A stretch of DNA of 64,000 nucleotides from an uncultured Clostridia bacterium (GTDB taxonomy: Bacteria > Bacillota > Clostridia > Christensenellales > Borkfalkiaceae), in the NCBI GenBank assembly GCA_944327465.1, contig CALVHH010000002.1:1-64000 (forward strand), written 5' to 3'. Below, piece after piece: positions 1 to 64,000 of this stretch; the first letter of the stretch is position 1, and every line of letters starts with the position of its first letter. The notes below the pieces were generated by a model. It was not told where the DNA came from. It ran no database searches and saw nothing but the letters and a program-made list of their open reading frames with translations. The position numbers and the translations under genes were made by a program.

Positions 1-74
1 AAACTGAACAGCCCGGTGGGCTGTTCACCGGGGCGCGTCCGCCTAAGGCGCAAATCCCGTCGCCTCGACCACGG

Positions 75-106
75 AAAAGCACTCGTTTTTTACAACGAGT
101 GCTTTT
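75..106 (+). terminator. Rho-independent terminator hairpin
   Basis: Thirteen bases (75-87, AAAAGCACTCGTT) pair with 94-106 around a T-rich loop, and the A/T flanks give a U-rich tail in either direction. It can end the minus-strand operon whose last gene stops at 217, and also whatever enters the window from the left on plus. Bases 1-74 hold no gene I can identify. Confidence 0.7.
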
Positions 107-216
107 ACTTATGAATCATGAAGACGCCGAAGGCGTTTATTTTATTGCGCAGGGCGCTTGTTCTTTACTTTTGTGTTTTTAATTGATTTTCTGAATTTTG
201 CCAAACGGAGCCCATG

Positions 217-1479
217 TCACTGTTCGGCGCTGACGTCCTGATTGTTTTCCGAAGCGGCGTCATCCCGCCTTTGGCGCATGTATGAAGGAAGGTCCTTAAT
301 ACATATGCCTATGCCCGCGAGAATGGCACCCACCACTGCCCCCGCTATCGCCGCGGCAAACACGTTTATGCCGCCCTGTGCGGTGAGCTTGTTTGTGGTG
401 TACACCACTCCGCTTATGCTGTCGAAGTAGTTGGAATACACCGCCTTGTATGTCGACGTGACCGAAGCGAGCAGATTGCGGCAGGCATTGAGCCTGGACG
501 TGAAGTCGGCGATGTCGGCGTCGCGGGAGTCGCTGTTTATCCAATCGAGCGAAGCCTGTATATCCTCTATCTGCAGTCTGAGGTCGACATTCTCCTCCGT
601 GAGTTCGGCAATCCGGCTGTTGTACGATTCGAGATATGAGCTGTCGGTTGCGCTGTCGCGCTGTTCGACGAGGGCGGCTATGCGCAGCTCGTTTTCGGCT
701 ATGCTCTTTTGAATGGTATCCATCCTTGGCTGAGCGCTTTCGGCATACTGCTCGTAGTCGAGCACGTAGTGACCGGTTGCGAGCAGAGCATCGAGATATT
801 CTTCGGCAGACTCATCGAACACGAGGGCGGCTTCCGCCCTGTAGTCGGCGAGCGTTCTGCCGTTAAAGGTGTATTCTACGCTCAATGCGGCTATCATGTC
901 GTCGTACCTCGACAGCACGTAGTCGCGCTGGTCGGAGAGGGCGTCGATCTTGGTCTGAAAGGCGTTGGCGTTATCGAACACCGAAAGATAGCCGTCGGCT
1001 GCTATGCCCTGCGATATGCTTTTTGCGCGCTCGACGGGGTATTCGGCTACTGCGCGCATGAATGCAGCCGCCTGTGGACCGTTCTTGAAGTAGCCCACGC
1101 CGACGGTCAGCGTGAAGCTGTTTTCGGCAGAGTTGGCGCCCGAGGTGAGGGCGAGGTCGATGTCGTCTTCGCGCACCATCTTTTCGACGTCTATACCCGA
1201 AAGGGCGTCGTTTGAACCGACGATGGATTGAAGTACCGAGGGCGAAACGACCGAATTGTACCTGAACGGCGTGCCGTCGGGGTATTCGTTGTTTTCAAGA
1301 CCGGGAAATTCTATGGTGTAGCTTATTGAATAGGTCTGCGTTGTCCTGTTGTACCAAAAATGCACCGCGCACACCGCCGCTGCCAGGAAGAGCGCCGCGA
1401 CGAGTATGACAAGCCATATCTTTTTTACTATTACTTTGAATATTTCCGATAGGGAAATTCCGCTTTCTCTGTTTTCCAT
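217..1479 (-). CDS. Wzz-type polysaccharide chain-length/export protein
   Basis: A 420-residue protein built like the polysaccharide co-polymerases that set chain length of surface polymers. One N-terminal membrane helix lies at about residues 20-42 and one C-terminal helix at about 368-392. Between them is a long, largely helical extracytoplasmic part with coiled-coil character at about 200-320. No Walker motifs follow the second helix, so it lacks a fused tyrosine-kinase domain. It starts 29 bases after the Wzy-like gene and is probably the last gene of the operon that begins near 5240. The ATG at 1479 has only a weak upstream GAG. Family assignment rests on topology and position more than on conserved motifs. 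Confidence 0.75.
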   Translation of the reverse strand: MENRESGISLSEIFKVIVKKIWLVILVAALFLAAAVCAVHFWYNRTTQTYSISYTIEFPGLENNEYPDGTPFRYNSVVSPSVLQSIVGSNDALSGIDVEKMVREDDIDLALTSGANSAENSFTLTVGVGYFKNGPQAAAFMRAVAEYPVERAKSISQGIAADGYLSVFDNANAFQTKIDALSDQRDYVLSRYDDMIAALSVEYTFNGRTLADYRAEAALVFDESAEEYLDALLATGHYVLDYEQYAESAQPRMDTIQKSIAENELRIAALVEQRDSATDSSYLESYNSRIAELTEENVDLRLQIEDIQASLDWINSDSRDADIADFTSRLNACRNLLASVTSTYKAVYSNYFDSISGVVYTTNKLTAQGGINVFAAAIAGAVVGAILAGIGICIKDLPSYMRQRRDDAASENNQDVSAEQ

Positions 1480-1508
1480 TCAATTATCTCACTGTGCCCG
1501 ACGGGCGG

Positions 1509-2963
1509 TTATTTTAAATATCCTGCAACGCGGCAAGCCGAAAGCCTTTTGCGAACGGGGCGGTCGGCTTCGGAATTGACGAGCACGGACATCATAAAGC
1601 TGTAGACGAGCGTGGGCAGTATATAGAATATGTGGTTATCGAGCAGGCTTAAAATGAGCAGCGAAGCTATCACCAGCCCGACGAAAAATCTGTCCTCGGT
1701 GGGGTTTTTGAAGAAGGATATTATCGTCTGCATGCGGTAGACGGCGTAGGGCACAAATGCCGCGAGACCGCCGACGGCGAGCAGTTCGAACACGGTGTTG
1801 TGATACATATCGGGCATGAGCGGCAGACCGATAAAGCCGGGGTCGCCGCTTATGTCGCGATAAAAACCTATGCCGAACACGGGATTTGCTTTGAACTTTT
1901 CCCATGCCTCGTCGTACAGCCCGTCCCTTCCGCTGCCGGAAAAGAAGTTGTTGGTCAGCATTTCGTACACGCTGACCACTATGTCGCGCTTGACTATGAG
2001 CACGCCGACGGCAGCCAGCGCCGCCGCGCCGAAGATTATTAGGTGCGCCCGCTTTTTTGCGCTCTTTACAAGTATCCAGAGCGCGCAGACGACAAATATG
2101 AACGAGCCTATGAGCATGGCCTGGCGGCTCATGCTCACGAGTATGCAGCCTTCGAGAAGCACGAGATATATTGTAAATATCCACCCGCGTGACGAGCGGC
2201 AGGCAAGATATGCCGCGGCTGGCAGCGATATAGTGAACAGCATGCCCATTGTGTTATACATGCCCCAGCCGAAGTAGAGCGCCGACCTGTCTATGCCGCC
2301 GTCCTCCGTCCACAGATTGTCGTATGTAAGATAGGCGACGGCGAGCTCGATCATAAGGCATATAGTAAGCGCGATAAACGACAGCGCTATGCGCCTGTAC
2401 ATATCGCCGTTGACAGCCACCGAGCCGCTGCATATTACAAATACGCCGAGGAACATGAACGCCATAAAGAATCCGTATACGGCGTTCATTGGAGTATATC
2501 CTTGGCTGAATATGCCGTTGCACATTATGCCCGCCGCAAACAGGCACAGCCCGAAAAACACAGGAGTGCACCTGAATGTGCCGCTGCTCACCGCCCTTAC
2601 CATGCGGTATACGCCCGCGGCGGCGAATACGCCGACGCCGACACCTATCTGCGCGAGCACGGCAGGCTGAAAATAGTAGTCGGAAGGGTCGTTGCCCCCG
2701 GCGAGCGTGGGGGAATTGCGCATGGATATCATGATATTCATGAACAGGAATATGGTTATCAGCGGAGTACCGTCTCTTGTGAACAGCAATATGAATGTGC
2801 CGCAGATAGCCATATACCATATTATGACCATATCGAGGCTGAGATAATAACAGCCGAGCGTCACTGCCGCCGTAAAAAAGGGAAAGTAGTCCGAAGCCAC
2901 CGCTCTGCGCAGCAAAACTAAAATGTCCGTATTGAGTTTTGTGTTTCTTTCCTTAGTGTTCAT
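1509..2963 (-). CDS. O-antigen ligase/polymerase (Wzy-like) membrane protein
   Basis: A polytopic membrane protein of about 484 residues with ten or more hydrophobic helices. Near the C-terminal third it carries the O-antigen ligase/polymerase pattern: GSGRDGLYDEAWEKF, then NPVFGIGF, then a periplasmic-loop HN in MYHNTVFELLAVGG. Members polymerise or ligate lipid-linked sugar repeat units at the outer face of the membrane. I chose the ATG at 2963; a TTG at 3008, abutting the previous stop, would add 15 residues (MPPRCFLLFARSIAG) that look like untranslated leader. It sits directly before the Wzz-like gene, the usual partner. Confidence 0.82.
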   Translation of the reverse strand: MNTKERNTKLNTDILVLLRRAVASDYFPFFTAAVTLGCYYLSLDMVIIWYMAICGTFILLFTRDGTPLITIFLFMNIMISMRNSPTLAGGNDPSDYYFQPAVLAQIGVGVGVFAAAGVYRMVRAVSSGTFRCTPVFFGLCLFAAGIMCNGIFSQGYTPMNAVYGFFMAFMFLGVFVICSGSVAVNGDMYRRIALSFIALTICLMIELAVAYLTYDNLWTEDGGIDRSALYFGWGMYNTMGMLFTISLPAAAYLACRSSRGWIFTIYLVLLEGCILVSMSRQAMLIGSFIFVVCALWILVKSAKKRAHLIIFGAAALAAVGVLIVKRDIVVSVYEMLTNNFFSGSGRDGLYDEAWEKFKANPVFGIGFYRDISGDPGFIGLPLMPDMYHNTVFELLAVGGLAAFVPYAVYRMQTIISFFKNPTEDRFFVGLVIASLLILSLLDNHIFYILPTLVYSFMMSVLVNSEADRPVRKRLSACRVAGYLK

Positions 2964-3008
2964 GCCTGCGATAGACCTTGCAAATAATAAAAAACAGCGC
3001 GGCGGCAA

Positions 3009-3260
3009 TCAGCCGAGTATGCACTCGACTTCGCGGGTGCGGTTGACGGGGTAGGGCGCCGTCTGCTTTGTGACGTGCTCCACCCTTGTCACTTCGCCCT
3101 CGCAAGACGCCCTGCCGCAGGGCACTTTTACTCTGTCGCCCGGCGCTATGAGGGGAAAGGGGCTTATGAACCACGCCTTTCCGCCGCCGTCAAGCGCGAC
3201 GAATACGTATATCAGATCTTCATAATCGGCGATGATGCCGCCGCTGAGGGAATGTATCAT
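3009..3260 (-). CDS. Small conserved hypothetical protein, probable beta-barrel
   Basis: An 83-residue soluble protein without signal peptide or membrane segment. The central part (VKVPCGRASCEGEVTRVEHV) followed by TAPYPVNRTREVECIL reads like a small OB/SH3-like beta-barrel: a 'can be changed to a fixed rule' strand pattern often seen in short Clostridia proteins of unknown role. The ATG at 3260 lies only five bases after the lyase stop, with an AGGTAAGAG ribosome site inside the end of that gene, so the two are translationally close. Its stop abuts the region before the Wzy-like gene. Function is not known; the location suggests co-expression with the polysaccharide genes. Confidence 0.6.
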   Translation of the reverse strand: MIHSLSGGIIADYEDLIYVFVALDGGGKAWFISPFPLIAPGDRVKVPCGRASCEGEVTRVEHVTKQTAPYPVNRTREVECILG

Positions 3261-3265
3261 AGCTC

Positions 3266-5182: not shown

Positions 5183-5240
5183 GAAAGAATGTCCTAACTT
5201 TATAAGATACCGCGAAAGTTTGCCCGCAGTACGCAACTAT

Positions 5241-5269
5241 ATAATAACACATCAAACATGCAAATGCAA
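5241..5269 (-). promoter_or_regulatory. Sigma-A-type promoter for the lyase-wzy-wzz operon
   Basis: On the minus strand TTGCAT (5269-5264) is followed after 17 bases by TATTAT (5246-5241). The predicted start of transcription near 5234 leaves a leader of about 50 bases before the ATG at 5182. No other promoter-like element is evident between the genes down to 217. Confidence 0.55.
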
Positions 5270-5318
5270 GCTTTATTGCCAAACTATATGCAATATGCAC
5301 CGACAGTGAAGGAAATGG

Positions 5319-5362: not shown

Positions 5363-5377
5363 TTTTAAGACGGTATT

Positions 5378-6064: not shown

Positions 6065-6118
6065 AAAAACATCTCCTTATATACTGTAAATTAATTGAGC
6101 TTCGCGCAAAGCGCCCCG

Positions 6119-6564: not shown

Positions 6565-6592
6565 AATTTGCAGGCGCGAAACGGACGGTAGC

Positions 6593-7339: not shown

Positions 7340-9925
7340 ATGGACGGAAATAAATTTACACAGAGCAGCGTTCAGGCAATAAACCGCTGCGAGCGCACCG
7401 CACGCGAGTACGGCAACAGCGCCATAATGCCCGTGCACATTCTGTATTCGCTGTTGGATAAGGACTGCATAGTGCCGCGCATACTTTCAAGGTCGGGGAC
7501 GGACCCCGACGGTCTGAGGAGCGCCGCACTCGACGAAATAGAGCGCCTGCCCAGGATATCGGGCAGCGGCCGCGGGGATATATACATCTCTTCGGAGGCG
7601 AACGCGGTATTTGACGGAGCCGAAAAGACAGCCGCGGGCATGAAGGACGCGTATATTTCGGTAGAGCACATCTTTATTGCGCTTATAGACTGCGAGGACA
7701 GGACGGTGAGCGCGCTGCTTGCACGCTTTGGCGTGAACAAAAACGTCTTTTTGCAGGGACTCAAGGCGGTGCGCGGCAACACGCAGGTGACCAACGACAA
7801 CCCCGAAGAGACCTACGAGGCGCTGGAAAAGTACGGCACCGACCTGACTGCCGCGGCGAGAAGGCACAAGCTTGAACCCGTGATAGGGCGCGACGAGGAG
7901 ATAAGAAACGTAATACGCATACTTTCGCGCAAGACTAAGAACAACCCCGTGCTGATAGGCGAGCCCGGCGTGGGCAAGACGGCGATAGCCGAAGGGCTTG
8001 CAGAACGCATAGTAAAGGGCGACGTGCCCGAAGGGCTGAAGGACAAGACGCTGTTCGCGCTTGACATGGGCGCGCTGATAGCGGGCGCAAAGTACCGCGG
8101 CGAATTTGAAGAGAGACTTAAAGCGGTATTGCAGGAAGTTTCGAAGTCGGAGGGCAGGATACTGCTGTTCATAGACGAACTGCACACCGTAGTGGGCGCG
8201 GGCAAAACGGACGGAGCCATGGACGCGGGCAATCTGTTAAAGCCGCTGCTTGCCCGCGGCGAACTGCACTGCATAGGCGCGACGACTTTGGACGAGTACA
8301 GAAAGTACATCGAAAAGGACGCCGCGCTCGCCAGAAGATTCCAGCCCGTCACCGTGGACGAACCCACCGTGGAGGACACGATATCAATACTGCGCGGACT
8401 CAAGGAGAGGTTTGAAATTTTCCACGGCGTGCGCATACACGACGACGCGCTCGTGGCGGCGGCGACGCTTTCGAACAGGTATATTACCGACCGTTTCCTG
8501 CCCGACAAAGCCATTGACCTTGTGGATGAGGCGGCGGCGATGATAAGAACGGAGATAGATTCCATGCCGAGCGACATGGACGCGCTCAACCGCAGGATAT
8601 TGCAGCTTGAAGTCGAAGAAAAGGCGCTTTCGAAGGAAAAAGACAACATTTCGCAGGCGCGGCTGGAGACCATACGCAAACAGCTTGCCGACGACAAGGA
8701 AGAGTTTGCCGCCATGAAGACCAAATGGGACGACGAAAAGGCAGCCATTCACGACGAAAAACAGCTTAAAGAGCGCATAGACGCCATGAAGGCGGATATA
8801 GACAGCGCCACAAACAGCGGCGACTTTGAAAGGGCGGCGAGGCTGAGGTACGGCGAACTGCCCGGGCTGGAAAAGCAGCTTGAAGAAGCCAAGGCGCGTA
8901 TGGCGGGCGAAAACGCGCTGCTGCAGGACGAAGTGACCGAAGAACAGATAAACCAGATAGTTTCGCGCTGGACGGGCATACCCGTGGCGCGCCTGAAGGA
9001 GGGCGAAAGGGAAAAGATACTGCACCTGCCCGAAGATTTGCACAGGCGCGTCGTCGGTCAGGACGAAGCCGTTAAAAAGGTATCCGAAGCCATACTGCGC
9101 TCGAGGGCGGGCATATCCGACCCGGCGCGGCCGATAGGCTCCTTCCTCTTCCTCGGTCCCACCGGCGTGGGCAAGACCGAACTTGCAAAGTCGCTCGCCG
9201 AAAACCTGTTCGACGACGAAAAGAATATAGTGCGCATAGACATGTCCGAATACATGGAAAAGTTTTCGGTATCGCGCCTTGTGGGCGCGCCCCCGGGATA
9301 CGTGGGCTACGAGGAGGGCGGCACGCTGACGGAGGCGGTAAGGCGCAAGCCCTACTCCATTGTGCTCTTCGACGAGATAGAAAAGGCGCACCCCGACGTG
9401 TTCAATATACTGCTGCAGATACTTGACGACGGCAGAGTGACCGATTCGCAGGGGCGCACGGTTGACTTTAAAAATACCATAATAATTTTGACATCCAACC
9501 TCGGCTCGACGGATATTATCGAGGGAATAAAGGACGGCGAAATAACAAAAGAGGCACAGGACAAGGTCAACGCCATACTCAAACGCTCGTTCCGTCCCGA
9601 ATTTTTGAACAGGCTGGACGAGATAATAATGTTCAAGCCGCTGACGAGGGAAAATATTACGGGCATCGTGGACATACTGCTTGCCCGCCTTGCAAAGAGG
9701 CTTGAAGAGGAAAACCTGAAACTTGAAGTCACGCAGAAGGCAAAGGACTACATCGCCGACAGCGGCTACGACAATATTTACGGCGCGCGCCCCTTGAAGA
9801 GGTTTATTCAGACCCACGCCGAAACGCCGATAGCAAAGTATATTATAGGCAGCAACCCCGCAGCGGGGACTACGATAACTTTGGACGCAAACGAAGAGGG
9901 GCTGTATATTAATAATTTACACTAA
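7340..9925 (+). CDS. clpB: ClpB-type AAA+ disaggregase
   Basis: An 861-residue Hsp100 protein. It has the two-repeat Clp N domain (about 1-145), a first AAA+ module with Walker A GEPGVGKT (about 207-214), a coiled middle domain (about 410-535) containing [15 protein letters not shown], and a second AAA+ module with GPTGVGKT (about 605-612) and the C-terminal [11 protein letters not shown]. The full-length middle domain separates ClpB from ClpC, and no ClpP-binding loop of the ClpX/ClpA type is evident. ClpB works with DnaK to extract polypeptides from aggregates in the cytoplasm. It is followed by a strong terminator, so it is probably a single-gene unit. Confidence 0.93.
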
Positions 9926-10283: not shown

Positions 10284-11282
10284 TTAATAGAATATTCCAC
10301 CGCAATCAATACCAATTTTCCATGCATCACTTGTTGCCCCAATAGTCAGCGAAGGAGCAACTGAAATATCCGACCCCGCTGAAATACCTATACTGCCACT
10401 AATATCAATTGAATTATATGTATGAATATAGCTTAATTTAATATTTGTCTCTGTATTTTCATTTGTTAAGCTTTTTAAGGTGAGTGTAGCCGTTGCATCC
10501 TGCAATTCTTTGCCGCACCAGCCAGACTTTTCAAGAAAGCTCCAAATATATGCATCAAACCTACCTTCTTCAACGGGATAAAAAGTTACAGAACCAGCAT
10601 TATCATAATATCTCCCTGATATTGAATTATTTAATGCTTTAATTCTGCCGGAACCACCCCATGTTATACCCATAACATCTTCACTTCCTTCCTCCGCTGC
10701 TTCATTACCCATCCAAAACCATACCCATTCTTGTTTCCAACTTGATTTAGCAACAACATAATAAGTATCAGCAGGCATTATGTGATACACAGCAAGTTCG
10801 ATTGTTAAGCGGTATTTTGATGCCTCTGAGTCTTCAACTTTTTCTCCGGTAGTTTCACCAGTTGTCAATGTGGTTGATTGCGATAAATTTTGAGCTAAAG
10901 CCTGAGCCTCTTTAAATTCATCCAATTCTTTTTTTGTCATCAGATTGCTTTCAACAACCATACCATTTCTATCTGTTTTTTCTGACACCCAAACGTTTTG
11001 TACAACAGCGCCAACAAATTCATGATTATCATTTAAAACCGTAGTTTGCAAACTATTTTGTTGACGAATTTCTTTAGTCACGTTTTTCATCTGAACATAT
11101 TGCTGATAACTATCTTCGCTTAACAGATATGTAGTTTCAGAATAATAACCTTCATCCGCATAAACTGTATAATAATTCTTCTGTGCTGGAGTATAGAAAA
11201 TGAAAATACTTAATATTAAAGCTGTTAACAATAAAACGATAACTAATGATTTTATGGATTTTTCTAAATTAAATTTTTTCAT
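10284..11282 (-). CDS. Exported or membrane-anchored protein of unknown family (AT-rich island)
   Basis: A 332-residue protein starting at the ATG at 11282, with AGAGGTG upstream. Residues about 9-30 form one hydrophobic helix (signal peptide or anchor). The rest is predicted outside the cell: an early part rich in Tyr/Gln, a KEAQALAQNL helix, a Trp-rich segment (SSWKQEWVWFWMG), and a C-terminal part of alternating small residues (SGSIGISAGSDISVAPSL) that looks like beta strands, ending with CGGIFY. The only Cys residues in the mature part are in WCGKEL and near the end, so one disulfide is possible. I recognise no family. Confidence 0.65.
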   Translation of the reverse strand: MKKFNLEKSIKSLVIVLLLTALILSIFIFYTPAQKNYYTVYADEGYYSETTYLLSEDSYQQYVQMKNVTKEIRQQNSLQTTVLNDNHEFVGAVVQNVWVSEKTDRNGMVVESNLMTKKELDEFKEAQALAQNLSQSTTLTTGETTGEKVEDSEASKYRLTIELAVYHIMPADTYYVVAKSSWKQEWVWFWMGNEAAEEGSEDVMGITWGGSGRIKALNNSISGRYYDNAGSVTFYPVEEGRFDAYIWSFLEKSGWCGKELQDATATLTLKSLTNENTETNIKLSYIHTYNSIDISGSIGISAGSDISVAPSLTIGATSDAWKIGIDCGGIFY

Positions 11283-11291
11283 AAAACACCT

Positions 11292-11450
11292 CTTATCATA
11301 AATTTTTGGTTGCAACCTTTGATAAAACTTTATCACTAAAGCCCTAAAATGTCAATAGCGAAACTGTCCCGTTTTTGTCCCAAATTACTTTATTCAAAAA
11401 ATTGTTTTAATAAAACCAATACTTATCAATTGCATTTTATTATGATAAAT
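11292..11450. promoter_or_regulatory. Divergent control region with three similar palindromic sites
   Basis: Between the exported-protein gene and the divergent XRE gene lie TTATCATAAA (11293-11302), a perfect inverted repeat TGATAAA-AC-TTTATCA (11320-11335) and TTATGATAAA (about 11439-11449). All share the half-site TGATAAA or TTATCA. Their placement over both presumed promoters suggests operator sites for the neighbouring XRE protein. A TATAAT-like stretch (TGTATAATG) at 11451-11459 sits just before the XRE start codon. Confidence 0.5.
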
Positions 11451-11464
11451 TGTATAATGTTATT

Positions 11465-11824
11465 ATGAATCAAATTAGCGGTAAGTATCTTAAAAAAATC
11501 AGAGAAGAACATGGATATTCTCTGCGCAAGCTTTCAGAAAAAATCTTTATATCAAAATCAACAATTCAGCGTTGGGAGCAATCTTACTTACCTGAAGATA
11601 ATGATTTATTAAATGAAATAGCAAAAGTATTTGACACGACAGTAGATGAAATGCGTTTAGCAAGTACAAAATTATATGAAGATAACACGACAGAATCTGA
11701 AAAAGCATTTCTAACAAACGAGCAGAGAGCAGAAATAAAGTTCGGTATTAAAGGTCTTGCTATAACAGCTACAATAATAGGAATTTTTCTCATAACAATA
11801 ATTATTTTACCTGCAATATGCTAA
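11465..11824 (+). CDS. XRE-family regulator with C-terminal membrane helix
   Basis: A 119-residue protein from the ATG at 11465 (an in-frame TTG at 11450 would add five residues). Residues about 7-60 are a helix-turn-helix of the XRE type (YLKKIREEHGYSLRKLSEKI, then SKSTIQRWEQ and FDTTVDEM). A single hydrophobic helix near the C-terminus (GLAITATIIGIFLITIIILP) would tether it to the membrane. It is divergent from the two unknown genes and shares their AT-rich composition. It probably controls them through the repeated TGATAAA sites. It is a second membrane-anchored XRE within 5 kb, but the two proteins differ in sequence and helix number. Confidence 0.8.
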   Translation: MNQISGKYLKKIREEHGYSLRKLSEKIFISKSTIQRWEQSYLPEDNDLLNEIAKVFDTTVDEMRLASTKLYEDNTTESEKAFLTNEQRAEIKFGIKGLAITATIIGIFLITIIILPAIC

Positions 11825-22751: not shown

Positions 22752-23705
22752 CTAATTCCACTTGCAATTTATAGAAATTATCGTAGTCGGCATACCGACA
22801 ATTTGTATATCAAATTTCAAGCTTGTTTCTACCTTAGTTGAAGCATTATGTATGCGGAAGCTGAATTGCCAGCCGCCATCCATATAAAGTTCGACTGTGT
22901 TGGTGCTGAGAGGCTTAAAATCAAGACTAACTATTCGCGTCGGTAACAAAGCACGAGGTACTTCGATTTTGGGAGCAATGACTCGACCAGATTGATTTAA
23001 TGTCCCGTGAAGATTGTAAGTTTGTATCTGCGTAATCCGTTTGCTGTCGATGCTAATAATCTTATAAAAATCAAATTCCCCCAACAAATATTCAACCATC
23101 TTCTGCGGAACGGTAGAGTCGCACTTATTACTACGTAAAACTTCTTCAATGAAAGCTTTAAGCAACGGAACATAGACTTCTTTATCCTTAGACGGAAGCT
23201 CGTTCCAGTTTCTGTTTTCGAATTTCTGTTCGGTCAAATAGTTAAAAATCGGCTCAACGCTGTTCCAATACTGTTCGGAGCACGGTATACCGAACCACTT
23301 GGCGCCAAAATCCAAAGTCTTTGCCAATCTGCTGTGTTTTACTGCAAAGTGATTGTGTTTGATGCTCAAGCCAATTTCCCACTTAATATCCGAGCGAGCA
23401 ATGATAATATCGCGCACATCACCGAGTTTTCCTTCATTGTCGGTTTGAATCTTGAGAGTCAGCAAATCAGAACCTGTTTCAAGCAACATCGGTTCCATAT
23501 CGAATATTGTACTTACCGCAGCAGCCGCGCTTTGTTGCAAAATATATTTGAATCCATCCGAAGTTGAAGCCCATGCGCGTGATGCCGCTTCGTAAGCTGA
23601 ATTTTTAATAATTTCAGCAAAGCGAATTTTATTTATTTCTGCGCAAAGCGTATTAATGCATATATATTCGTATGCGCGACCTTGATTATTGCTTTGATTA
23701 CTCAT
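22752..23705 (-). CDS. Type II restriction endonuclease, HaeIII family
   Basis: A 317-residue protein, close to the 318 residues of R.HaeIII. The middle holds GDVRDIIIARSDIKWEI followed by GLSIKHNHFAVKHSRLA, the nuclease core; Asp99, Glu110 and Lys116 are candidates for the metal-binding set. HaeIII cuts GG^CC to blunt ends. The gene starts 12 bases after the methyltransferase stop and is last in the C-M-R order, so methylation would come first when the system enters a new cell. It is AT-rich compared with the flanks. Target specificity is inferred from its strong pairing with an M.HaeIII-like enzyme. Confidence 0.9.
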   Translation of the reverse strand: MSNQSNNQGRAYEYICINTLCAEINKIRFAEIIKNSAYEAASRAWASTSDGFKYILQQSAAAAVSTIFDMEPMLLETGSDLLTLKIQTDNEGKLGDVRDIIIARSDIKWEIGLSIKHNHFAVKHSRLAKTLDFGAKWFGIPCSEQYWNSVEPIFNYLTEQKFENRNWNELPSKDKEVYVPLLKAFIEEVLRSNKCDSTVPQKMVEYLLGEFDFYKIISIDSKRITQIQTYNLHGTLNQSGRVIAPKIEVPRALLPTRIVSLDFKPLSTNTVELYMDGGWQFSFRIHNASTKVETSLKFDIQIVGMPTTIISINCKWN

Positions 23706-23717
23706 CTTCCGTGCTCC

Positions 23718-24707
23718 TTATTGCAACGCCTGTTTGATTGCGACAGCTACTTCGTAGGCGAGATTGACAGGTACTGCATTACCAATCATTTTGTATGCAT
23801 CATCCGTATAATTATAAATGAATTTGAAGTCATCCGGAAATCCTTGAATCCTTGCTATTTCACGAATTGTCATTCTACGATAAAGATGCTCTTTGCTCTT
23901 AACAAACTCACGTTTATTTTGCTCAATAAATATCATTTTGGGCGCCTGTGGATGTAATTGACATTGTCTGCCCGATGCCTGTACAGTAAAAGCCTGTTCG
24001 TCCCATCCCTTAACGCGATTACGACTCATAAATATGGGCGAATACGCACCCGTAAAATATTCATTGTTATTGATTGCTTGAAGATTATGATAATTTCTCG
24101 CTCCTGCAGGAACAGCAGTAAACTGTAAATCCCATATTACATCACGTAATGTAAGTTTTTTCTTGTCGTCCGCTGTAGAGCCGATAGGAAATTCAAAATG
24201 TATGCCCAAATCACTGCGAAAGCCTATATAAAATACCCTGCGTCTTTCCTGTGGTACTCCGTAATCTTTTGCATTAACTAAGTTAATTGAAACATCATAT
24301 CCACAATCTTTAAACATCGCGATAATATTATTAACCGCTTCCGAATGCCGATTAGCAAGCATTCCGCTTACGTTTTCCGCAAGAAAAAACTTTGGTTGTT
24401 TGCTTTTAAGTATTCGAATATAGTCATAAAATAACTTCCCACGCGCATCGTTAATTCCGCGAAGCGCTCCCGCTTCAGACCAAGACTGACATGGAGGACC
24501 GCCAATTATCCCATCGATATCATCAGGAAAATCATCCTCTTTTAAGCTTCGGATATCACCTTCGATCAATTTAGTAAACGGATGATTTATTTTATATGTA
24601 TCCCATATTGTAGGGTCATACTCATTTGCTATAGAAATCTCAAAACCTGCTCTCTCAAATCCAAGGTCTAATCCACCGCATCCGCTAAAAAGGCTAATTA
24701 TTTTCAT
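23718..24707 (-). CDS. DNA (cytosine-5) methyltransferase, M.HaeIII-like
   Basis: A 329-residue C5 methyltransferase. Motif [12 protein letters not shown] (7-17), motif [14 protein letters not shown] with catalytic Cys73, motif VI ENV (about 116), motif [14 protein letters not shown], the target recognition region with FMSRNRV and [17 protein letters not shown], motif IX and X ([11 protein letters not shown]). From memory the recognition region and motif IV are nearly word-for-word those of M.HaeIII, so GGCC with methylation of the inner C is predicted. It protects host DNA from the adjacent endonuclease. It is preceded by the small controller gene with a ten-base gap. Confidence 0.95.
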
Positions 24708-24717: not shown

Positions 24718-24918
24718 TCATATATTTTTATCATCAATAACAATATTGTTTTGTACACAAAATTGAATGAAGGCATATTCTTTCAATTTAGTCGGCTTTG
24801 TAACGCCATTTTCCCACCGATTTATTGTAGCATATCCGATACCTAATTGTTGTGCAAATTGCATTTGAGTAAGACCAAGCTGCATACGCGCCTGATATAC
24901 TTTTTCTTTAAATTCCAT
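24718..24918 (-). CDS. Controller (C) protein of the restriction-modification system, XRE fold
   Basis: A 66-residue protein made almost entirely of one lambda-repressor-like helix-turn-helix (ARMQLGLTQMQFAQQLGIGY, then ATINRWENGVTKP). The ATG at 24918 follows GAGGTG. Small proteins of this type directly upstream of the methyltransferase gene time expression of type II systems so that endonuclease appears late. A near-palindrome overlapping the promoter -10 box is the likely binding site. It is shorter than many C proteins and could instead be a simple repressor of the operon. Confidence 0.8.
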   Translation of the reverse strand: MEFKEKVYQARMQLGLTQMQFAQQLGIGYATINRWENGVTKPTKLKEYAFIQFCVQNNIVIDDKNI

Positions 24919-24940
24919 ACACACCTCGTAAACTAATCAT

Positions 24941-25108: not shown

Positions 25109-25184
25109 TGGTGGAGATGATCAGACTCGAACTGACTACCTATACGTTGCGAACGTATCGCTCTACCGGGTGAGCTACATCCCC
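25109..25184 (-). tRNA. tRNA-Ala(CGC)
   Basis: A 76-base cloverleaf on the minus strand. The acceptor pairs GGGGATG with CATCTCC and includes the G3-U70 pair that marks tRNA-Ala. The anticodon stem ATACG/CGTAT encloses TTCGCAA, giving anticodon CGC for codon GCG. The D arm (TAGCTCACCCGGTAGAGC) is standard and the 3' CCA is encoded. It is the second tRNA of the transcript and borders the restriction island. Confidence 0.93.
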
Positions 25185-26535: not shown

Positions 26536-30222
<3,687 letters not shown>

Positions 30223-30236
30223 ATATTCAACCTCCC

Positions 30237-33200
30237 TTACTTGTCGTCGCCGTCGTCTTCGCCGTCTTCTTCATCGTCGCCGAAGTCGTCGTCGGCATCC
30301 TCTTCCGCGTCGAAGAGAGTGTACTTGTCGCCGAGGTCGTCATCGTCGCCGAAGTCGTCTACATCCTCATCGGAGAACAGCTCCTTTGAAGCAAAGTCGT
30401 CGGCGTCGTCGTCCGTATCGAAGAGCTGGAAGCCTTCGAGCTCGCTCTCGTCTTCGACCACGCGCTCGCGGGCGCCCAGTTCGAATTCCTCGTCGGGAAT
30501 GGCGTTTTCGCGCTCTTCGGCTTCGCGGACGCGGGCGGTGGGTATCGCCTCGTCCTCGTCGTCGAGCTCGCGGATGATGAGTTCTTCGCCGCTCTCGGTG
30601 AGCACCTTGACGTCAAGCGCGAGCGACTGCAGTTCCTTTAACAGCACCTTGAAGGCTTCGGGAATGCCCGGTTCGGAGATATTGTTGCCCTTGACTATGG
30701 ATTCGTAGGTCTTTACGCGGCCGACGATATCGTCCGACTTGACGGTGAGTATCTCCTGAAGGATGTGCGCGGCGCCGTATGCTTCGAGCGCCCACACTTC
30801 CATTTCGCCGAAGCGCTGACCGCCGAACTGCGCCTTGCCGCCGAGGGGCTGCTGCGTGACGAGCGAGTAAGGACCTATCGAGCGGGCGTGGATCTTGTCG
30901 TCGACGAGGTGGATGAGCTTTATCATGTACTGCACGCCGACGGTGACCCTGTTTTCGAAGGGTTCGCCCGTTCTGCCGTCATAGACCTGTATTTTGCCGT
31001 CCACCTTGCCTTCGGGGTTGACTATGTTGTTTTCGTAGAAGAGTTGTTTGATGTCCTGCTCGGTGGCGCCGTCGAATACGGGGGTGGCTATCTTCCAGCC
31101 GAGCTGCTTGCACACCAGCCCCAGGTGCACTTCGAGCACCTGACCGATGTTCATTCGGGAAGGCACGCCGAGAGGGTTGAGAACTATCTGCAGCGGGGTG
31201 CCGTCCGCAAGGAAGGGCATATCCGCCTGGGGAAGCACGCGGGAGATGACGCCCTTGTTGCCGTGGCGGCCCGCCATCTTGTCGCCGACCTGGATCTTGC
31301 GCTTCTGCGCGATATATACGCGCACGAGCTTGTTTACGCCGGGCGAAAGTTCGTCCTTGTTTTCGCGGGTGAACACCTTTACGTCGACGACTATGCCGCC
31401 TTCACCGTGGGGGACCTTTAAGGAAGTATCGCGCACTTCCCTTGCCTTTTCGCCGAAGATGGCGCGAAGCAGGCGCTCTTCGGGGGTGAGTTCGGTTTCG
31501 CCCTTGGGGGTGACCTTGCCGACGAGGATATCGCCGGTAGTCACTTCGGCGCCGATGCGGATTATGCCGTTTTCATCGAGGTCTTTGAGCGCGTCCTCGC
31601 CGACGTTGGGGATATCGCGGGTTATCTCCTCTTCGCCCAGCTTGGTGTCGCGGGCTTCGGTTTCGTGCTCTTCGATGTGGATGGACGTGAACACGTCGTC
31701 CTGCACGAGCTTTTCGGAGATGAGGATGGCGTCCTCGTAGTTGTAGCCCTCCCACTCCATGTAGCCGATGAGGATATTTTTGCCGAGCGCGAGCTCGCCG
31801 TTGTTCGTGGCGGGGCCGTCGGCTATGATTTCGCCCTCTTCAACGCGGTCGCCGGTATTGACGATGGGGCGCTGGTTGAGGCAGGTGTTCTGGTTGGAGC
31901 GTTCGAATTTCTTTAACTTGTATTCGGCGACGAAGCCGTCCTCTTCCTTTATCTTTATGAGGTCGGAAGCGCAGCCGACAACGACGCCCGCCTTTTTGGC
32001 GCGCACCATTACGCCCGAGTCGCGGGCGATGGCTGCCTCGATGCCCGTTGCGACGATGGCGCTCTCGGTCTTCATGAGGGGCACCGCCTGGCGCTGCATG
32101 TTCGAACCCATAAGCGCACGGTTGGTATCGTCGTTTTCAAGGAAGGGTATGAGCGCGGTCGCTACCGAGACGAGCTGCTTGGGCGAAACGTCCATGTAGT
32201 CCATTCTTTCGGGAGCGAGCTCGGTTATGAGGTCGCGGTGACGGCAGCCGACGTGAGCGTTGACGAAGTGGTTGTTTTCGTCCAGCGGTTCGTTTGCCTG
32301 GGCGACGGTGAACTTATCCTCCTCGTCCGCGGTGAGGTAGTCGACCACGTCGGTCACGGTGGGTACGCCGTTTTCATCCTTTACCACCCTGCGGTAGGGC
32401 GACATGATGAAGCCGTACTCGTTGACCTTTGAGAAGGTTGCAAGCGAGGAGATGAGTCCGATGTTCTGACCTTCGGGCGTCTCTATGGGGCACAGACGGC
32501 CGTAGTGCGAGTGGTGAACGTCGCGCACTTCGAAAGTTGCCCTGTCGCGGTTGAGACCGCCGGGGCCGAGCGCGGAGAGCTTGCGCTTGTGCGTGAGCTC
32601 GGCGGCGGGGTTGGTCTGGTCCATAAACTGCGACAGCTGCGAGGAGCCGAAGAATTCGCGGATGACGGCAGATACGGGGCGGACGTTGACGAGTCCCGAG
32701 GGCGTGACTTCCATTGCGTCCTGGGTAGCCATGCGCTCCTTTATGAGCTTTTCGAGGCGGGAAATGCCTATGCGCAGCTGGTTGGTGAGCAGTTCGCCGA
32801 CCGAGCGCACGCGGCGGTTGCCGAGGTGGTCGATATTATCTATCGTGCCTATGCCGTACTGCAAATCTATGTTGGTGGATATCGAAGCGACGATGTCGTC
32901 GACGGTGATGTGCTTGTGGTTGAGCTTTTCGATGACGGGCTTTATTGCCTTCTTTTCGTCCTTGTCGAGCGAAGTCTTGTCGCTCGCGAGCAGCATATCG
33001 AACACCTTGCAGGCTTCGACGAACTTTATGCGCTGGTCGCGGCGGCGCTCCCTGTTCTTCTTCTCTTCGGGCTTTTCGTCGTCGGAGGCGGGTATCTCCT
33101 CGCAGTAATAGACGGCGTTGATGCGGTCGACGTACTTTTCGGCGACCTGTTCGCACGTCTGCGCTCTGCACTCGGCGGCGAGCTCCTTCATGAACAGGAA

Positions 33201-34316
33201 GTTGGGAAGATATATCGTGGGCAGCAGCCCGAACATCTTGGGGTCCTTATCGGAGACCGACTTGAAGTTTACCGTGTTGTTGGCGATTATCTTGTGCTTT
33301 ATGCGGCCCTGTACGGGGTCGTTTACCCATACGTACACTTCGTTTACGCCCGCATCCTGAATTTCGAATGCGCGGGCGTCGCTTTCGATGACGTCGCCGG
33401 CGTGGGCGATTATTTCGCCCGTGCGGGGGTCGGCTATGTCCTCTGCGAGCGTGCAGCCGGGCAGACGGTATGCCAGGTTGAGCTTTTTATTGAACTTGTA
33501 CCTGCCGACTTTGACCACGTCGTACCTGCGGGGGTCGAAGAAGAGATTGTTGAGGTGCTGCTTTACCGAAGCTTCGGTGGGCACTTCGCCCGGGCGCAGA
33601 CGGCGGTAGAGTTCGATAAGACCGTCGCTTTCGGACTTGGTGGTGTCCTTGGCGATGGTGTTTTCCATCATCTTGTCATCGGCAAAGAGGTTTAAAATAG
33701 CCCTGTCCGAACCGAAACCGAGGGCGCGCAGAAGCACGGTAGCGCATATCTTGCGCTTCCTGTCCACGTGTACCCAGAGCACGCCCTGGGCGTCCTGTTC
33801 GAATTCGAGCCATGCGCCGCGGTTGGGGATGACGGTGGTGCCGAACATCTCCTTGCCCGTTTTGTCCACTTCCTTTGCGTTGTACACGCCGGGCGAACGG
33901 ACGAGCTGCGATACTATTACGCGCTCGGCGCCGTTGATGATGAACGAGCCGGAATCGGTCATGAGGGGGAATTCGCCCATGAATACGTCCTGGTCGATGA
34001 CTTCGTCCTTGACCTTGTTTACCAGCCTGACCTTTACGTGCATGGGAAGCGCGTAGGTGGCGTCGCGGTTGCGGCACTCTTTTTCGTCGTACTTGGGTTT
34101 GTCGTCAAACCAGTGGTCGAGGAAATAGAGCTCGTAGTGGTCGGAATAGTCGGTTATCGGCGAAAAATCTTCAAATACTTCGCTTATGCCCTCGTTGATG
34201 AAGGTATCGTAGCTCGACTTCTGAATTTCAACGAGGTCGGGAATGTCGATGACTTCGTTGATCTTGCCGAATTTGCGCCTTTCCGTCTTGCCATACTTGT
34301 GAACGGGTAAATTCAT
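30237..34316 (-). CDS. rpoB: DNA-directed RNA polymerase subunit beta
   Basis: A 1359-residue beta subunit, longer than the roughly 1190 of many Firmicutes. The rifampicin-region [16 protein letters not shown] is canonical, but the following [13 protein letters not shown] has Lys where E. coli Arg529 stands. The extra length is mostly a strongly acidic C-terminal tail (about residues 1235-1359, runs such as DDDADDF and EEDADDDF) of low complexity. AAGGAG lies 11 bases before the ATG. The usual upstream rplKAJL genes are absent; the next gene upstream is divergent. Confidence 0.97.
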
Positions 34317-59137: not shown

Positions 59138-59167
59138 GCGCCCGAGCGGCAGCTGCCGCTCGGGCGC
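59138..59167. repeat. 30-bp perfect palindrome between convergent genes
   Basis: The sequence is perfectly self-complementary about 59152/59153 with the same GCGGCAGCTGCCGC centre as the 5319 palindrome. It sits between the spoIIE and malQ stops and can serve as a shared terminator without U tract. Confidence 0.75.
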
Positions 59168-59225
59168 ACGGCTTAAATTCAATAAACAGTTTTACAAGCC
59201 GATGAGCGCGCCGCGCCCGTCGGTT

Positions 59226-60737: not shown

Positions 60738-60765
60738 TTTCCCACCTCACAGTTGACAAATAAAG

Positions 60766-61950
60766 TTACTTTTTGAGCAGAGATTTTATCCCGGCGACCG
60801 CCTCTTTTGTGACTTCGGGGCTGCCGAACGCCGTAAGGCGGAAGAAGCCTTCGCCGTTGGCGCCGAAGCCCGCGCCGGGCGTGCCGACGACCTGAATATT
60901 TTCAAGCAGGTAGTCGAAGAACTGCCAGCTGCCCATGCCGTCGGGGCACCTGAGCCAGATGTACGGCGAATTCTTGCCGCCGGTATACCATATGCCCAGC
61001 TCGTCCATGCAGTCGGCAATGAGCTTTGCATTGGCGCGGTAGACGGCGAGGTTTGCCGCTATCTGCCGCATGCCTTCGGGCGTGAACACCGCCGCGGCGC
61101 CGCGCTGAACGATGTACGAGACGCCGTTGAATTTTGTCGTCTGGCGCCTGAGCCACATCTTGTTTGCCGACATGCCGTCGCGCACGAGCGCCTTGGGCAC
61201 CACGGTATAGCCGCAGCGCGTACCCGTGAAGCCCGCAGTTTTGGAGAGCGAGCAGAACTCGACGGCGCACGTCTTTGCGCCCTCTATCTGAAATATCGAA
61301 CGGGCGAGCCCGTCATCGGTTATAAAGCATTCGTATGCGGCGTCGTAAAGTATGACGGCGCCCTTGGCGTTGGCGTAGTCCACCCACTCTTTCAGCTGTG
61401 CCTTGGAGTATGCCGCGCCCGTGGGATTGTTGGGCGAGCACAGATATATTATATCGGCATCTACCGAATAGTCGGGCATGGGCAAAAAGCCGTTAATTTC
61501 GGTGGCGTTCATGTACAGCACCCTGCGCCCCGCCATGGTGTTGGTATCCACATATACGGGATAGACGGGGTCGGGCACGAGCACGGTGTTGCCTTCGCCG
61601 AAGATATCCAAAATGTTGCCGATATCCGACTTTGCGCCGTCGGAGATGAATATTTCGTCGGGCTCGAGCTCGACGCCGTGGCTGAGATAGTAGCCGCGCA
61701 CCCCCTCCCTTAAAAAGTCGTAGCCCTGTTCGGGACCGTAGCCGCGGAAGGTGGATTTATCCGCCATGTCGTCCACGGCGGAATGCAGCGCCGAAATGAC
61801 TGCCGGCGCGAGGGGCAGCGTGACGTCGCCTATGCCCAGGCGGAGAATTTCACGCCCGGGGTGGGCGGCGGAATATGCCGCCACCTTTTGGGCTATCGTT
61901 GAAAACAGATAGCTTTGAGCTATGTCGTTGAAATGCGTATTGAAGTGCAT
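60766..61950 (-). CDS. dapL: LL-diaminopimelate aminotransferase
   Basis: A 394-residue PLP enzyme. The start NDIAQSYLFSTIAQKV and GIGDVTLPLAPAVISAL are typical of DapL. The PLP lysine lies in SLSKTAGFTGTRCGY (about 235), NNPTGAAY supplies the PLP-stabilising residues, and RLTAFGSPEV the C-terminal substrate Arg. It converts tetrahydrodipicolinate directly to LL-DAP, a one-step variant of the lysine/peptidoglycan route. It follows pyrG by seven bases. The dapF gene lies at the window edge. Confidence 0.95.
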   Translation of the reverse strand: MHFNTHFNDIAQSYLFSTIAQKVAAYSAAHPGREILRLGIGDVTLPLAPAVISALHSAVDDMADKSTFRGYGPEQGYDFLREGVRGYYLSHGVELEPDEIFISDGAKSDIGNILDIFGEGNTVLVPDPVYPVYVDTNTMAGRRVLYMNATEINGFLPMPDYSVDADIIYLCSPNNPTGAAYSKAQLKEWVDYANAKGAVILYDAAYECFITDDGLARSIFQIEGAKTCAVEFCSLSKTAGFTGTRCGYTVVPKALVRDGMSANKMWLRRQTTKFNGVSYIVQRGAAAVFTPEGMRQIAANLAVYRANAKLIADCMDELGIWYTGGKNSPYIWLRCPDGMGSWQFFDYLLENIQVVGTPGAGFGANGEGFFRLTAFGSPEVTKEAVAGIKSLLKK

Positions 61951-61957
61951 ATATGCC

Positions 61958-63565
61958 TCAGTGTTTTTTATTTTGGGAATACTTTACCGCGTATTTTATA
62001 AACTCCCTGAACACGGGATGGGCGTGCTGGGGACGGGACTTGAACTCGGGGTGGAACTGCACGCCGAGGTAGAAGTCGTTTGCGGGGACTTCGACGGCTT
62101 CGACGAGCAAGCCGTCGGGCGAGGTGCCGGCTATATTCATGCCCGCATCCTCCATCTCCTTGCGGAAGGTGTTGTTGAATTCGTATCTGTGGCGGTGGCG
62201 CTCGGAGATGTCGTCCGCGCAGTACGCCTGCTTCATCATTTTGCCTATCACGCGGCAGGGATATGCGCCCAGGCGCATTGTGCCGCCCATCTTTACGCCG
62301 TGCTGGTCGGGCATGAGGTCTATTACGGGGTGCTTGCTTTCGGGGTCGAATTCCGAAGAGTTTGCGTCGGCATAGCCCAAAACATTGCGGGCGTATTCTA
62401 TGACCGCCGTCTGCATGCCCAGGCATATGCCCAGATAGGGCACGTTGTGTTCGCGGGCATACTTTGCGCAGAGTATTTTGCCTTCGACGCCGCGGTTGCC
62501 GAAGCCGCCGGGCACGAGTATGCCGTCCACGCCCGAAAGAAGTTCGCCCACGTTCTCTTCGGTCAGGCTCTCGCTGTCCACCCAGTCGATATCTATCTTT
62601 GCGGCGTTTTCATAGCCGGCGTGCGCCAAAGCTTCGGCGACGGAAAGATAGGCGTCGTGGAGCTGAACGTACTTGCCGCAGAGGGCTATTTTGACCGTCT
62701 TGTCCCTTGCGGCTATGCGCGCGAGCATGTTCTGCCATTCGGTGAGGTCGATGTCGCGGGGGTCAAGGTGCAGTTTTTTGCAGACTATGGTTGAAAAATT
62801 GCTCTCTTCGAGCATTATGGGACACTGATAGAGCACGGGCAGAGTCATGTTCTCGATGCAGCATTCGGGCTCGACGTTGCAGAACATGGCGATCTTGTCC
62901 TTGACTTCCTTGGGCATGGGGGCGTCGACGCGGGCGATTATGATATCGGGGTTGATGCCCATGCCCTGCAGTTCCTTTACGGAGTGCTGGGTAGGTTTGG
63001 ATTTGAACTCTTCGGAGCCTGAGATATAGGGCACGAGCGAGACGTGTATGAAGCAACAATTGTCCCTGCCGACTTCGCGGGAGACCTGGCGTATGGCTTC
63101 GATGAAGGGCTGGCTTTCGATATCGCCTATCGTGCCGCCTATTTCGGTTATTACCACGTCGGCGCCCGTGGAGCTCGCCACGTTGTATATGAACGACTTT
63201 ATTTCGTTGGTGATGTGGGGTATGACCTGCACCGTCTGACCGAGATATTCGCCGTTGCGCTCCTTGTTGAGGACGTTCCAATATACCTTACCGGTGGTGA
63301 GGTTGGAATACTTGTTTAAATTTTCGTCGATAAAGCGCTCGTAATGCCCGAGGTCGAGGTCGGTTTCGGCGCCGTCGTCGGTGACGAACACTTCGCCGTG
63401 CTGATAGGGGCTCATTGTGCCGGGGTCGATGTTTATGTAGGGGTCAAGCTTCTGCGAAGCGACCTTGTAGCCCCTGCACTTTAAGAGCCTGCCGAGCGAT
63501 GCCGCCGTTATTCCTTTGCCGAGTCCGGACACTACGCCGCCCGTAACGAAAATGTACTTTGTCAT
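61958..63565 (-). CDS. pyrG: CTP synthase
   Basis: A 535-residue enzyme. The synthetase domain has [40 protein letters not shown] and [16 protein letters not shown]. The glutaminase domain has [10 protein letters not shown] in the form [13 protein letters not shown], catalytic Cys in YLGICLGMQ and His/Glu in [12 protein letters not shown]. It makes CTP from UTP, glutamine and ATP. CAGGAG precedes the ATG. It shares a strand and a short gap with dapL. Confidence 0.98.
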
Positions 63566-63599
63566 TTATATTCTCCTGGGTAAATAGGTTGTTTACTGT

Positions 63600-63846
63600 A
63601 ATATTTTCCTGTTGTCATTTCGACAAAACTTCTCCCTTTTGTCATTTCGACCGGAGCACGTAGTGCGGAGCGGAGAAATCTCGCCGCAGAGCGCCGCGAC
63701 AAAAGAGGAGCGATACGAATGAATCACGCTCGTGCTCTGTCTTCCAAACTATATAGTCAGATCTCCCGGCTGCGCCCAAAATTCAGGCAGCGACAAAATT
63801 GCCGCAATTCATGAAAACGCCAAAGGCGTTCTCAATTCATAGAAAT
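63600..63846. repeat. Dispersed repeats between pyrG and dapF
   Basis: Units GTCATTTCGAC (about 63615 and 63640) and GAGAAATCTC (63670) repeat the families at 6119 and 35310. From 63808 to 63840 comes ATTCATGAAAACGCC-AAAGGCGTT-CTCAATTCAT, like the AATTCATG units at 35160 and the ATCATGAAGACGCC unit at 115. No gene is seen. Confidence 0.8.
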
Positions 63847-64000
63847 TTAAATTTCTATCTCTCCCCAAAAGACCAGCGTTGCGCCGCCCGTCATGTATAC
63901 CGTTTCGCCTGTATAGGTTATGACGAGGTCGCCGCCGCGGAGATGCACGGTTATGGGGGTATTCATGTCGGCACAGCCGTTTAAGACCGCCGCCACCGCC
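63847..64000 (-). CDS. dapF: Diaminopimelate epimerase, C-terminal part (cut by window edge)
   Basis: The minus strand is open from the window edge to a TAA at 63849-63847. The 50 residues visible read AAVLNGCADMNTPITVHLRG, then GDLVITYTGETVYMTGGATL and VFWGEIEI. The pattern LRGGDL, YMTGGA and VFWGE is the end of DapF, which turns LL-DAP into meso-DAP. The gene is cut by the edge. With dapL it completes part of the lysine/peptidoglycan route. Confidence 0.85.
   Translation of the reverse strand, partial: AVAAVLNGCADMNTPITVHLRGGDLVITYTGETVYMTGGATLVFWGEIEI

What the first reader, a model, noticed from the sequence alone, without database searches (positions are those of the whole stretch)
1..64000. 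GGCC is about ten-fold rarer than composition predicts across the whole window
Reading through both strands I find only about 30-40 GGCC sites in 64 kb; at about 57% GC roughly 420 are expected from base composition. GCGC, GGCGCC and CCGG are common. The avoidance is visible in codon choice. In clpB and elsewhere Gly is mostly GGC, but before a codon starting with C it is GGG or GGA (GGG-CTT near 7994, GGG-CTG at 8874, GGA-CTC near 8398). Likewise Ala after a codon ending in G is GCG or GCA rather than GCC. The window encodes a HaeIII-like system predicted to cut GGCC. Either long exposure to restriction, or mutation of methylated GGmCC, could cause this. The restriction genes are AT-rich, yet the avoidance is genome-like in breadth, so the target has probably been under pressure longer than this copy alone explains.
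Basis: partly seen in the sequence, partly recalled or inferred. Interest (0 to 1): 0.8.

Follow-up and report, generated by a model that had tools for sequence, protein, structure and literature searches.

The report
Fast GGCC loss near HaeIII genes
This gut bacterium has lost most of its GGCC sequences since parting from its nearest relative, most likely because it carries a restriction enzyme that cuts GGCC, but a number of related species show the same loss with no such enzyme found in their draft genomes.

Summary
The depletion is real: 30 GGCC in the window against 417 expected from trinucleotides and 28 in genes against 381 in codon shuffles (z -23.7). It is genome-wide: 204/2,851 in 458 kb from 22 readable of 23 contigs. 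The window encodes a HaeIII-type endonuclease and methyltransferase.

The sister G218 (100/99) shows no such system and near-normal GGCC (0.87). On this genome's own branch 50 of 60 ancestral GGCC sites in the sampled genes were lost, against 252 of 1,421 control words; 7 of 50 fit deamination. So the depletion looks young and selective, not older than this copy.

The unexpected part is the genus: ratios run from 0.03 to 1.02 in 71 of its 93 genomes, with at least 13 switches on an rpoB tree. Complete GGCC systems were found in 8 of 93 and do not significantly predict the ratio (p 0.23); in 15 depleted genomes no C5 methyltransferase was found. Site avoidance, also as a trace of lost systems, is published (PMC4687349); so much avoidance without a detected enzyme is unexplained.

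The parts
1..64000 (.). GGCC-depleted DNA (30 sites; 10 of them in rpoB/rpoC, 26536-34316)
22752..23705 (-). HaeIII-family restriction endonuclease, 317 aa, open frame
   Evidence: Pfam PF09556, E 8.4e-137, 298 of 298 profile positions
23718..24707 (-). M.HaeIII-like cytosine-5 DNA methyltransferase, 329 aa
   Evidence: PF00145 E 3.2e-104; full-length match to solved M.HaeIII 1dct, E 1.7e-133
24718..24924 (-). small helix-turn-helix-like ORF upstream of the methyltransferase, candidate controller (judged by eye from its translation, not scanned against a library)
   Evidence: translation
25109..25184 (-). tRNA-Ala(CGC) next to which the restriction cassette lies; the sister G218 has this tRNA followed by other genes

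Best explanation
A HaeIII-type Type II restriction-modification cassette sits beside a tRNA-Ala gene. Imperfect methylation makes each GGCC in the chromosome a liability, so synonymous and noncoding mutations that break GGCC are favoured and those that create it are removed. Shown: open R and M genes of the right families; genome-wide depletion; loss on the lineage's own branch after the split from a sister in which the system was not found, about nine times faster than control words; a loss spectrum that is mostly not deamination. Inferred: that the enzymes are active, that they act on GGCC here, that the cassette arrived after the split, and that it and not another agent drove the loss.
For: R and M families. 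Sister G218 (87% complete): GGCC 0.87 and 0.79 in two separate regions, no match to PF09556, PF00145 or PF09521, same tRNA pair with other genes after it. G000+G218 100/99 on a tree built without GGCC codons; one clade of the 7 high genomes rejected, p-AU 1.2e-7. Terminal branch of G000: 50/60 GGCC lost, 1 gained; 13 control words 252/1421 lost; hazard ratio 9.2. At 136 sites that are GGCC in at least 2 high sisters G000 keeps 10; 18 other words are kept at 23-79% (14 of 18 at 51-79%; lowest GATC 6/26, GCCA 30/91, CCGG 18/44, GGTC 18/39) and the high genome G218 keeps 58/107 of GGCC. Cassette GC 0.39-0.40 against flank 0.55.
Against: Presence of a GGCC system does not significantly predict depletion in the genus: RM+ median 0.09 (n 8), RM- median 0.24 (n 63), p 0.23. 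G216 and G176 carry complete systems at 0.59 and 0.68 (0.59 and 0.65 in a second region). G180 lost 15 of 17 GGCC sites on its own branch with no C5 methyltransferase found. The tree program flags uneven base make-up in 10 of the 16 rows, G218 among them. Activity was not tested.
Confidence: 0.7

Rival explanations
1. (About the genus as a whole; not exclusive of the best explanation.) The pressure on GGCC comes mainly from something other than the chromosomal systems seen here: GGCC restriction systems on plasmids or prophages that binning leaves out, systems present in only some strains of each species, or an unrecognised GGCC-targeting system. The HaeIII copy in the window is one visible case of it.
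For: 24 of 63 RM- genomes have GGCC under 0.15; 16 of 29 RM- genomes at least 95% complete do; in 15 depleted genomes no C5 methyltransferase was found. On terminal branches of those 15, GGCC gains 5/801 against 83/1192 for matched contexts, losses 34/55 against 165/1860. Three of the 15 (G104, G217, G221) have no PF01555 match either.
Against: The genomes are draft assemblies. No candidate agent was found: DndC over its cut-off only in G197 and G198. Losses of systems are known to leave such traces (PMC4687349). Five depleted genomes with other C5 methyltransferases could have a GGCC enzyme of another kind.
Confidence: 0.3
2. (About the genus as a whole.) Depletion without the enzyme is only a memory of recently lost GGCC systems.
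For: Published for many sites (PMC4687349; abstract, section on traces and first of two parts of the Discussion read). A truncated HaeIII endonuclease with a stop remains in G167, GGCC 0.09. The ratios between 0.15 and 0.7 look like recovery; RM- genomes at 0.15-0.4 gain GGCC at 0.70 of the matched rate (37/958 against 76/1376).
Against: My rough arithmetic: GGCC recovers about 0.2 of expectation per 0.1 substitutions per site, so the state below 0.15 lasts about 0.05 after loss, while purging at 9-11 times the control rate takes about 0.1. Carriers should then outnumber recent losers; observed 8 to 24. This is an order of magnitude only. One truncated HaeIII endonuclease and no truncated NgoPII were found in 93 genomes.
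Confidence: 0.35
3. Mutation: deamination of the methylated cytosine in GGmCC removes the sites.
For: The methyltransferase is of the 5-methylcytosine class. At glycine codons GGTC is the commonest replacement: 20 of 45 lost in G000, 22 of 33 in G180, 24 of 45 in G122; in homologous genes G000 has 13, 25, 28 and 5 more GGTC than G218, G184, G185 and G155 while it has 96, 125, 78 and 75 fewer GGCC. Two related cassettes (G176, G181) have a neighbouring ORF that is or resembles Vsr (G176 by Pfam; G181 by its similar N-terminus), as if deamination were a cost.
Against: 7 of 50 terminal losses are GGTC/GACC; GGCG 16, GGCA 10. All 75 alanine-frame sites (G-GCC) are lost in G000, mostly through the last base or the first, which deamination of the inner C does not give. 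GGTC/GACC stand at 0.95 genome-wide. In G180 and other depleted genomes no C5 methyltransferase was found.
Confidence: 0.03
4. General codon or dinucleotide bias of the lineage, unrelated to restriction.
For: CCGG, GATC and CTAG are low too.
Against: Codon shuffles keep codon use and still give 381; noncoding DNA is as depleted; relatives of 89-90% identity have near-normal GGCC.
Confidence: 0.02

Closest known systems
HaeIII restriction-modification system (PF09556 endonuclease, M.HaeIII 1dct/3ubt)
   Same: Both proteins match over their full length, the methyltransferase through its target-recognition region (position of that region recalled)
   Different: A small helix-turn-helix-like ORF stands upstream; activity untested
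Avoidance of Type II recognition sites, including traces of lost systems (Rusinov et al. 2015, PMC4687349)
   Same: Under-representation of a 4-bp palindrome in a genome with an orthodox Type II system; also in relatives without it
   Different: Here switches are placed on a tree of close relatives, the loss is put on one branch with its substitution spectrum, and most depleted genomes have no detected system
NgoPII restriction system (PF09521)
   Same: Endonuclease of this family stands beside the same methyltransferase lineage in three congeners; that NgoPII cuts GGCC is recalled
   Different: Not in the window

Membership tests
HaeIII-type Type II R-M | Endonuclease of family RE_HaeIII, full length | tested here: met
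   PF09556 1-298/298, E 8.4e-137
HaeIII-type Type II R-M | C5 methyltransferase aligned with M.HaeIII through the target-recognition region | tested here: met
   1dct alignment, query 1-328, 448 bits
HaeIII-type Type II R-M | Cuts GGCC; methylates the inner C | not testable with these tools
   needs enzyme or methylome; specificity of HaeIII recalled
Restriction-site avoidance | Site under-represented after composition correction | tested here: met
   o/e 0.07, codon-shuffle z -23.7, Karlin tau 0.137; the paper's span for unbiased sites is 0.78-1.23
Restriction-site avoidance | Avoidance goes with presence of the system across relatives (not strictly defining: the paper reports avoidance without it) | tested here: inconclusive
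   Direction as expected, medians 0.09 and 0.24, but p 0.23 with 8 RM+ and 63 RM-; below 0.1: 5 of 8 and 18 of 63, p 0.10
Phosphorothioate (Dnd) system with GGCC core (core recalled) | DndC present in depleted genomes | tested here: not met
   no match in G000; 13 of 93 genomes match, 2 over the cut-off (G197, G198)

The most novel reading that the evidence does not exclude
GGCC avoidance in this genus is driven above the level of the single genome: GGCC systems that come and go among strains or ride on unbinned elements keep purging the word species-wide (GGCC-free alleles would also pass restricting recipients more easily), or a GGCC-targeting system without any known cytosine-5 methyltransferase exists in the 15 depleted genomes where none was found. 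Either way the word count records a pressure whose agent is not in the assembled genome.
Probability: 0.3. Interest if true: 0.75.

Novelty: new member of a known kind. Interest (0 to 1): 0.5.

Why it matters
Whether restriction systems reshape their host's genome by selection or by mutation, how fast, and how long the trace lasts are old questions. One genus here shows at least 13 switches between low and higher GGCC (cut 0.3) on an rpoB tree of 68 genomes, with near-normal sisters as controls. Loss on the window's branch is about nine times faster than for control words and mostly not of the deamination kind, which favours selection. The depleted genomes without a detected enzyme press on the 'memory of lost systems' explanation.

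Tried and rejected
Deamination of GGmCC as the main route: rejected by the spectrum, a minor share possible. Low GGCC as the ancestral state kept by G000 and G180: where high sisters have GGCC, replacements in G000 and G180 agree in 25/67, less than at control words (112/212); G000/G151 35/109 against 162/387; G000/G122 31/98 against 156/436, hardly different; G122/G134 69/108 against 414/665, so that pair probably inherited its depletion. The tree rejects one clade of high genomes. Dnd phosphorothioation: rejected. DpnII as a parallel for GATC: 7 of 93 genomes, two of them partial, mixed GATC ratios, not pursued. Other C5 methyltransferases as GGCC enzymes: of 20 loci tested, 8 have the HaeIII-like recognition region and 12 do not; five depleted genomes (G040, G064, G110, G149, G166) were judged only from the partial alignments, and another kind of GGCC region cannot be excluded. 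Phage carriage: two viral contigs hold an M.HaeIII relative (80-82%), no endonuclease found in the stretches held, GGCC 26/42 and 22/33. Insertion-site repeats around the cassette: nothing convincing. A first attempt at reading recognition regions used one strand only and was repeated. The paired test of methyltransferase presence against low GGCC had too few informative pairs (7 pairs, 1-2 in which GGCC differed, all in the expected direction). Of 93 congeners, 22 were not measured for GGCC, mainly for want of a good rpoB stretch.
Full report
Observation. The window has 30 GGCC sites. Expectation is 356 from composition and 417 from trinucleotides. In 47 greedily chosen ORFs there are 28 against 380.9 +/- 14.9 in 100 codon shuffles; outside them 2 against 36. 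By codon frame (GGC-C, NGG-CCN, G-GCC) the ORFs hold 17, 5 and 6 sites where 177, 17 and 188 are expected. With 22 further stretches of at most 20 kb, one from each other contig, the genome gives 204/2,851 in 458 kb; every readable stretch lies between 0.03 and 0.16, and C20 reads as non-ACGT. Karlin's tau is 0.137. CTAG (0.06), GATC (0.36) and CCGG (0.36) are also low genome-wide, so the statement that CCGG is common is wrong.

The genes. 22752-23705 (minus) is a full-length HaeIII-family endonuclease, 23718-24707 (minus) a methyltransferase aligned end to end with M.HaeIII. A small helix-turn-helix-like ORF stands upstream at 24718-24924 (by eye). The cassette has GC 0.39-0.40 in a 0.55 flank. 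It lies next to tRNA-Ala(CGC); G218 has the same tRNA-Leu/tRNA-Ala pair and VanZ gene, followed by other genes at 0.52-0.66 GC. After the corresponding tRNA-Leu, G122 has a long ORF that by eye looks like Cas9 (not scanned), which suggests a defence hotspot.

The host. The assembly is 1.435 Mb in 23 contigs, 92% complete. The nearest named record is an uncultured Clostridia bacterium, RpoB 95% (L029; its contig length equals that of G184, so it is probably that genome); Candidatus Gallimonas faecavium is at 81%. The genus search covered 93 genomes.

Relatives. I measured GGCC in 71 of the 93 (stretches of 5.6-104 kb in all per genome), plus four other genomes of the family. The ratio runs from 0.03 to 1.02 in the genus. 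A second region was read for 13 congeners (a 14th, G221, was masked): G218 0.79, G184 0.85, G185 0.64, G178 0.79, G155 0.70, G216 0.59, G176 0.65, G181 0.30, G180 0.05, G217 0.03, G222 0.05, G194 0.15; G151 moved from 0.16 to 0.38. On the best rpoB tree of 68 rows (19 of 65 inner branches open) the state (cut 0.3) changes at least 13 times. In the window's own clade G000, G180 and G151 are low; G218, G184, G178, G185, G155, G182 and G188 are high.

When and how the sites were lost. A tree of 16 genomes from 11 genes without any codon touching GGCC joins G000 with G218 (100/99) and rejects a single clade of the seven high genomes (p-AU 1.2e-7); the program flags uneven base make-up in 10 rows, G218 among them, and few filled columns in G182. 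On G000's terminal branch 50 of 60 ancestral GGCC sites are lost and 1 gained; 13 control words lose 252 of 1,421, a hazard ratio of 9.2. G180 loses 15 of 17 (10.8), G151 13 of 22 (5.4), G218 8 of 61 (0.9). Where G218 has GGCC and G000 has not, 65 sites are backed by another high relative, 29 are not, 5 have no data. The new words on G000's branch are GGCG 16, GGCA 10, GGCT 5, GGTC 5, GGAC 5 and others; GGTC plus GACC are 7 of 50. In a wider count, 10 of 136 shared GGCC sites remain in G000; 18 other words are kept at 23-79%. All 75 alanine-frame sites are gone, mostly by the last base or the first. At glycine-frame sites GGTC is the commonest replacement (20 of 45 in G000, 22 of 33 in G180), which is what ordinary transitions or some deamination would give. 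Replacements in G000 and G180 agree less often (25/67) than at control words (112/212), as expected of separate losses; for G000 and G122 the difference is small (31/98 against 156/436) and G122 and G134 look alike (69/108 against 414/665), probably by descent. GGCC is shared between distant high genomes and G218 (38/87), G184 (53/82), G185 (31/87) and G178 (34/77) at rates like ordinary words, G000 6/87, so normal GGCC appears ancestral.

Enzyme against avoidance. RE_HaeIII is full length in 5 of 93 congeners, with a truncated copy in G167; RE_NgoPII in 3. All eight carry a methyltransferase 80-100% identical to the window's beside it. C5 methyltransferases of any kind were found in 44 of 93. 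Among the 71 measured, RM+ (8) have median 0.09 and RM- (63) 0.24, p 0.23; below 0.15 are 5 of 8 and 24 of 63. RM+ values are 0.03, 0.06, 0.08, 0.09, 0.09, 0.26, 0.59, 0.68. Fifteen genomes without a C5 methyltransferase found are below 0.15, nine of them at least 95% complete by the tool's figures. On terminal branches (rpoB+rpoC, parsimony, 68 genomes) these 15 gain GGCC in 5/801 and lose it in 34/55 opportunities, against 83/1192 and 165/1860 in matched contexts. The other groups: RM+ low (4) 1/206 and 24/34; low with other C5 enzymes (8) 7/526 and 8/21; RM- at 0.15-0.4 (20) 37/958 and 29/162; RM- at 0.4-0.7 (8) 34/327 and 20/151; RM- high (10) 38/262 and 23/383; RM+ not low (G216, G181, G176) 13/87 and 5/68, no avoidance visible. 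The groups were chosen by the ratio itself, partly in the same genes, so this shows when purging happened, not independently that it happened.

Reading. For the window, the simplest account is recent acquisition of a HaeIII system followed by fast selective purging. For the genus, carriers without avoidance fit recent arrivals, and depleted genomes without enzymes fit recent loss in part. A rough estimate of mine is that the depleted state should last about 0.05 substitutions per site after loss while purging needs about 0.1, so carriers should outnumber recent losers; the observed ratio is 8 to 24. Draft assemblies, plasmids and strain differences could hide systems.

Literature. Rusinov et al. 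2015 (PMC4687349; abstract, the section on traces of lost systems and the first of two parts of the Discussion read) report under-representation in 43.3% of 1930 cases where only another strain of the species, and 18.4% of 5162 where only another species of the genus, has the system. Five searches (listings with starts of abstracts, lists cut at 10) showed no title on this lineage; subscription papers are not covered, and the genus has no name that I could search for. That GGCC is avoided in Bacillus and its phages is recalled, not checked.

Noticed in passing
L199 (G176), L201 (G210), L203 (G211) against window 22752-24707: The same M.HaeIII-like methyltransferase lineage pairs with two endonuclease families (HaeIII and NgoPII). 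G176 and G181, close relatives (rpoB 0.88 nt), share an M gene (0.83 nt) and a neighbouring Vsr-like ORF but have different endonucleases, as if one isoschizomer had replaced the other.
   Followed up: partly
71 congeners: GATC varies like GGCC: from 0/43 (G223) to 71/68 (G211) between congeners; whether independently of GGCC was not tested. DpnII, found in 7 of 93 (two partial), does not obviously track it.
   Followed up: partly
71 congeners: CCGG is low (0.18-0.70) in the congeners measured except the outlying G162-G164 (0.79-0.93): perhaps an older, more uniform avoidance.
   Followed up: no
L269 4018-8016 (G122): Near the tRNA-Leu that corresponds to the one beside the restriction cassette in the window, G122 has a 1332-aa ORF resembling Cas9 by eye: possible defence hotspot.
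   Followed up: no
window 26536-34316: 10 of the 30 remaining GGCC sites are in rpoB/rpoC, all GGC-C at glycine codons, perhaps because preferred glycine codons resist replacement in highly expressed genes.
   Followed up: no
window 10284-11824: AT-rich island (29-36% GC) with a 350-aa protein without Pfam or NCBIfam match and a helix-turn-helix gene.
   Followed up: no
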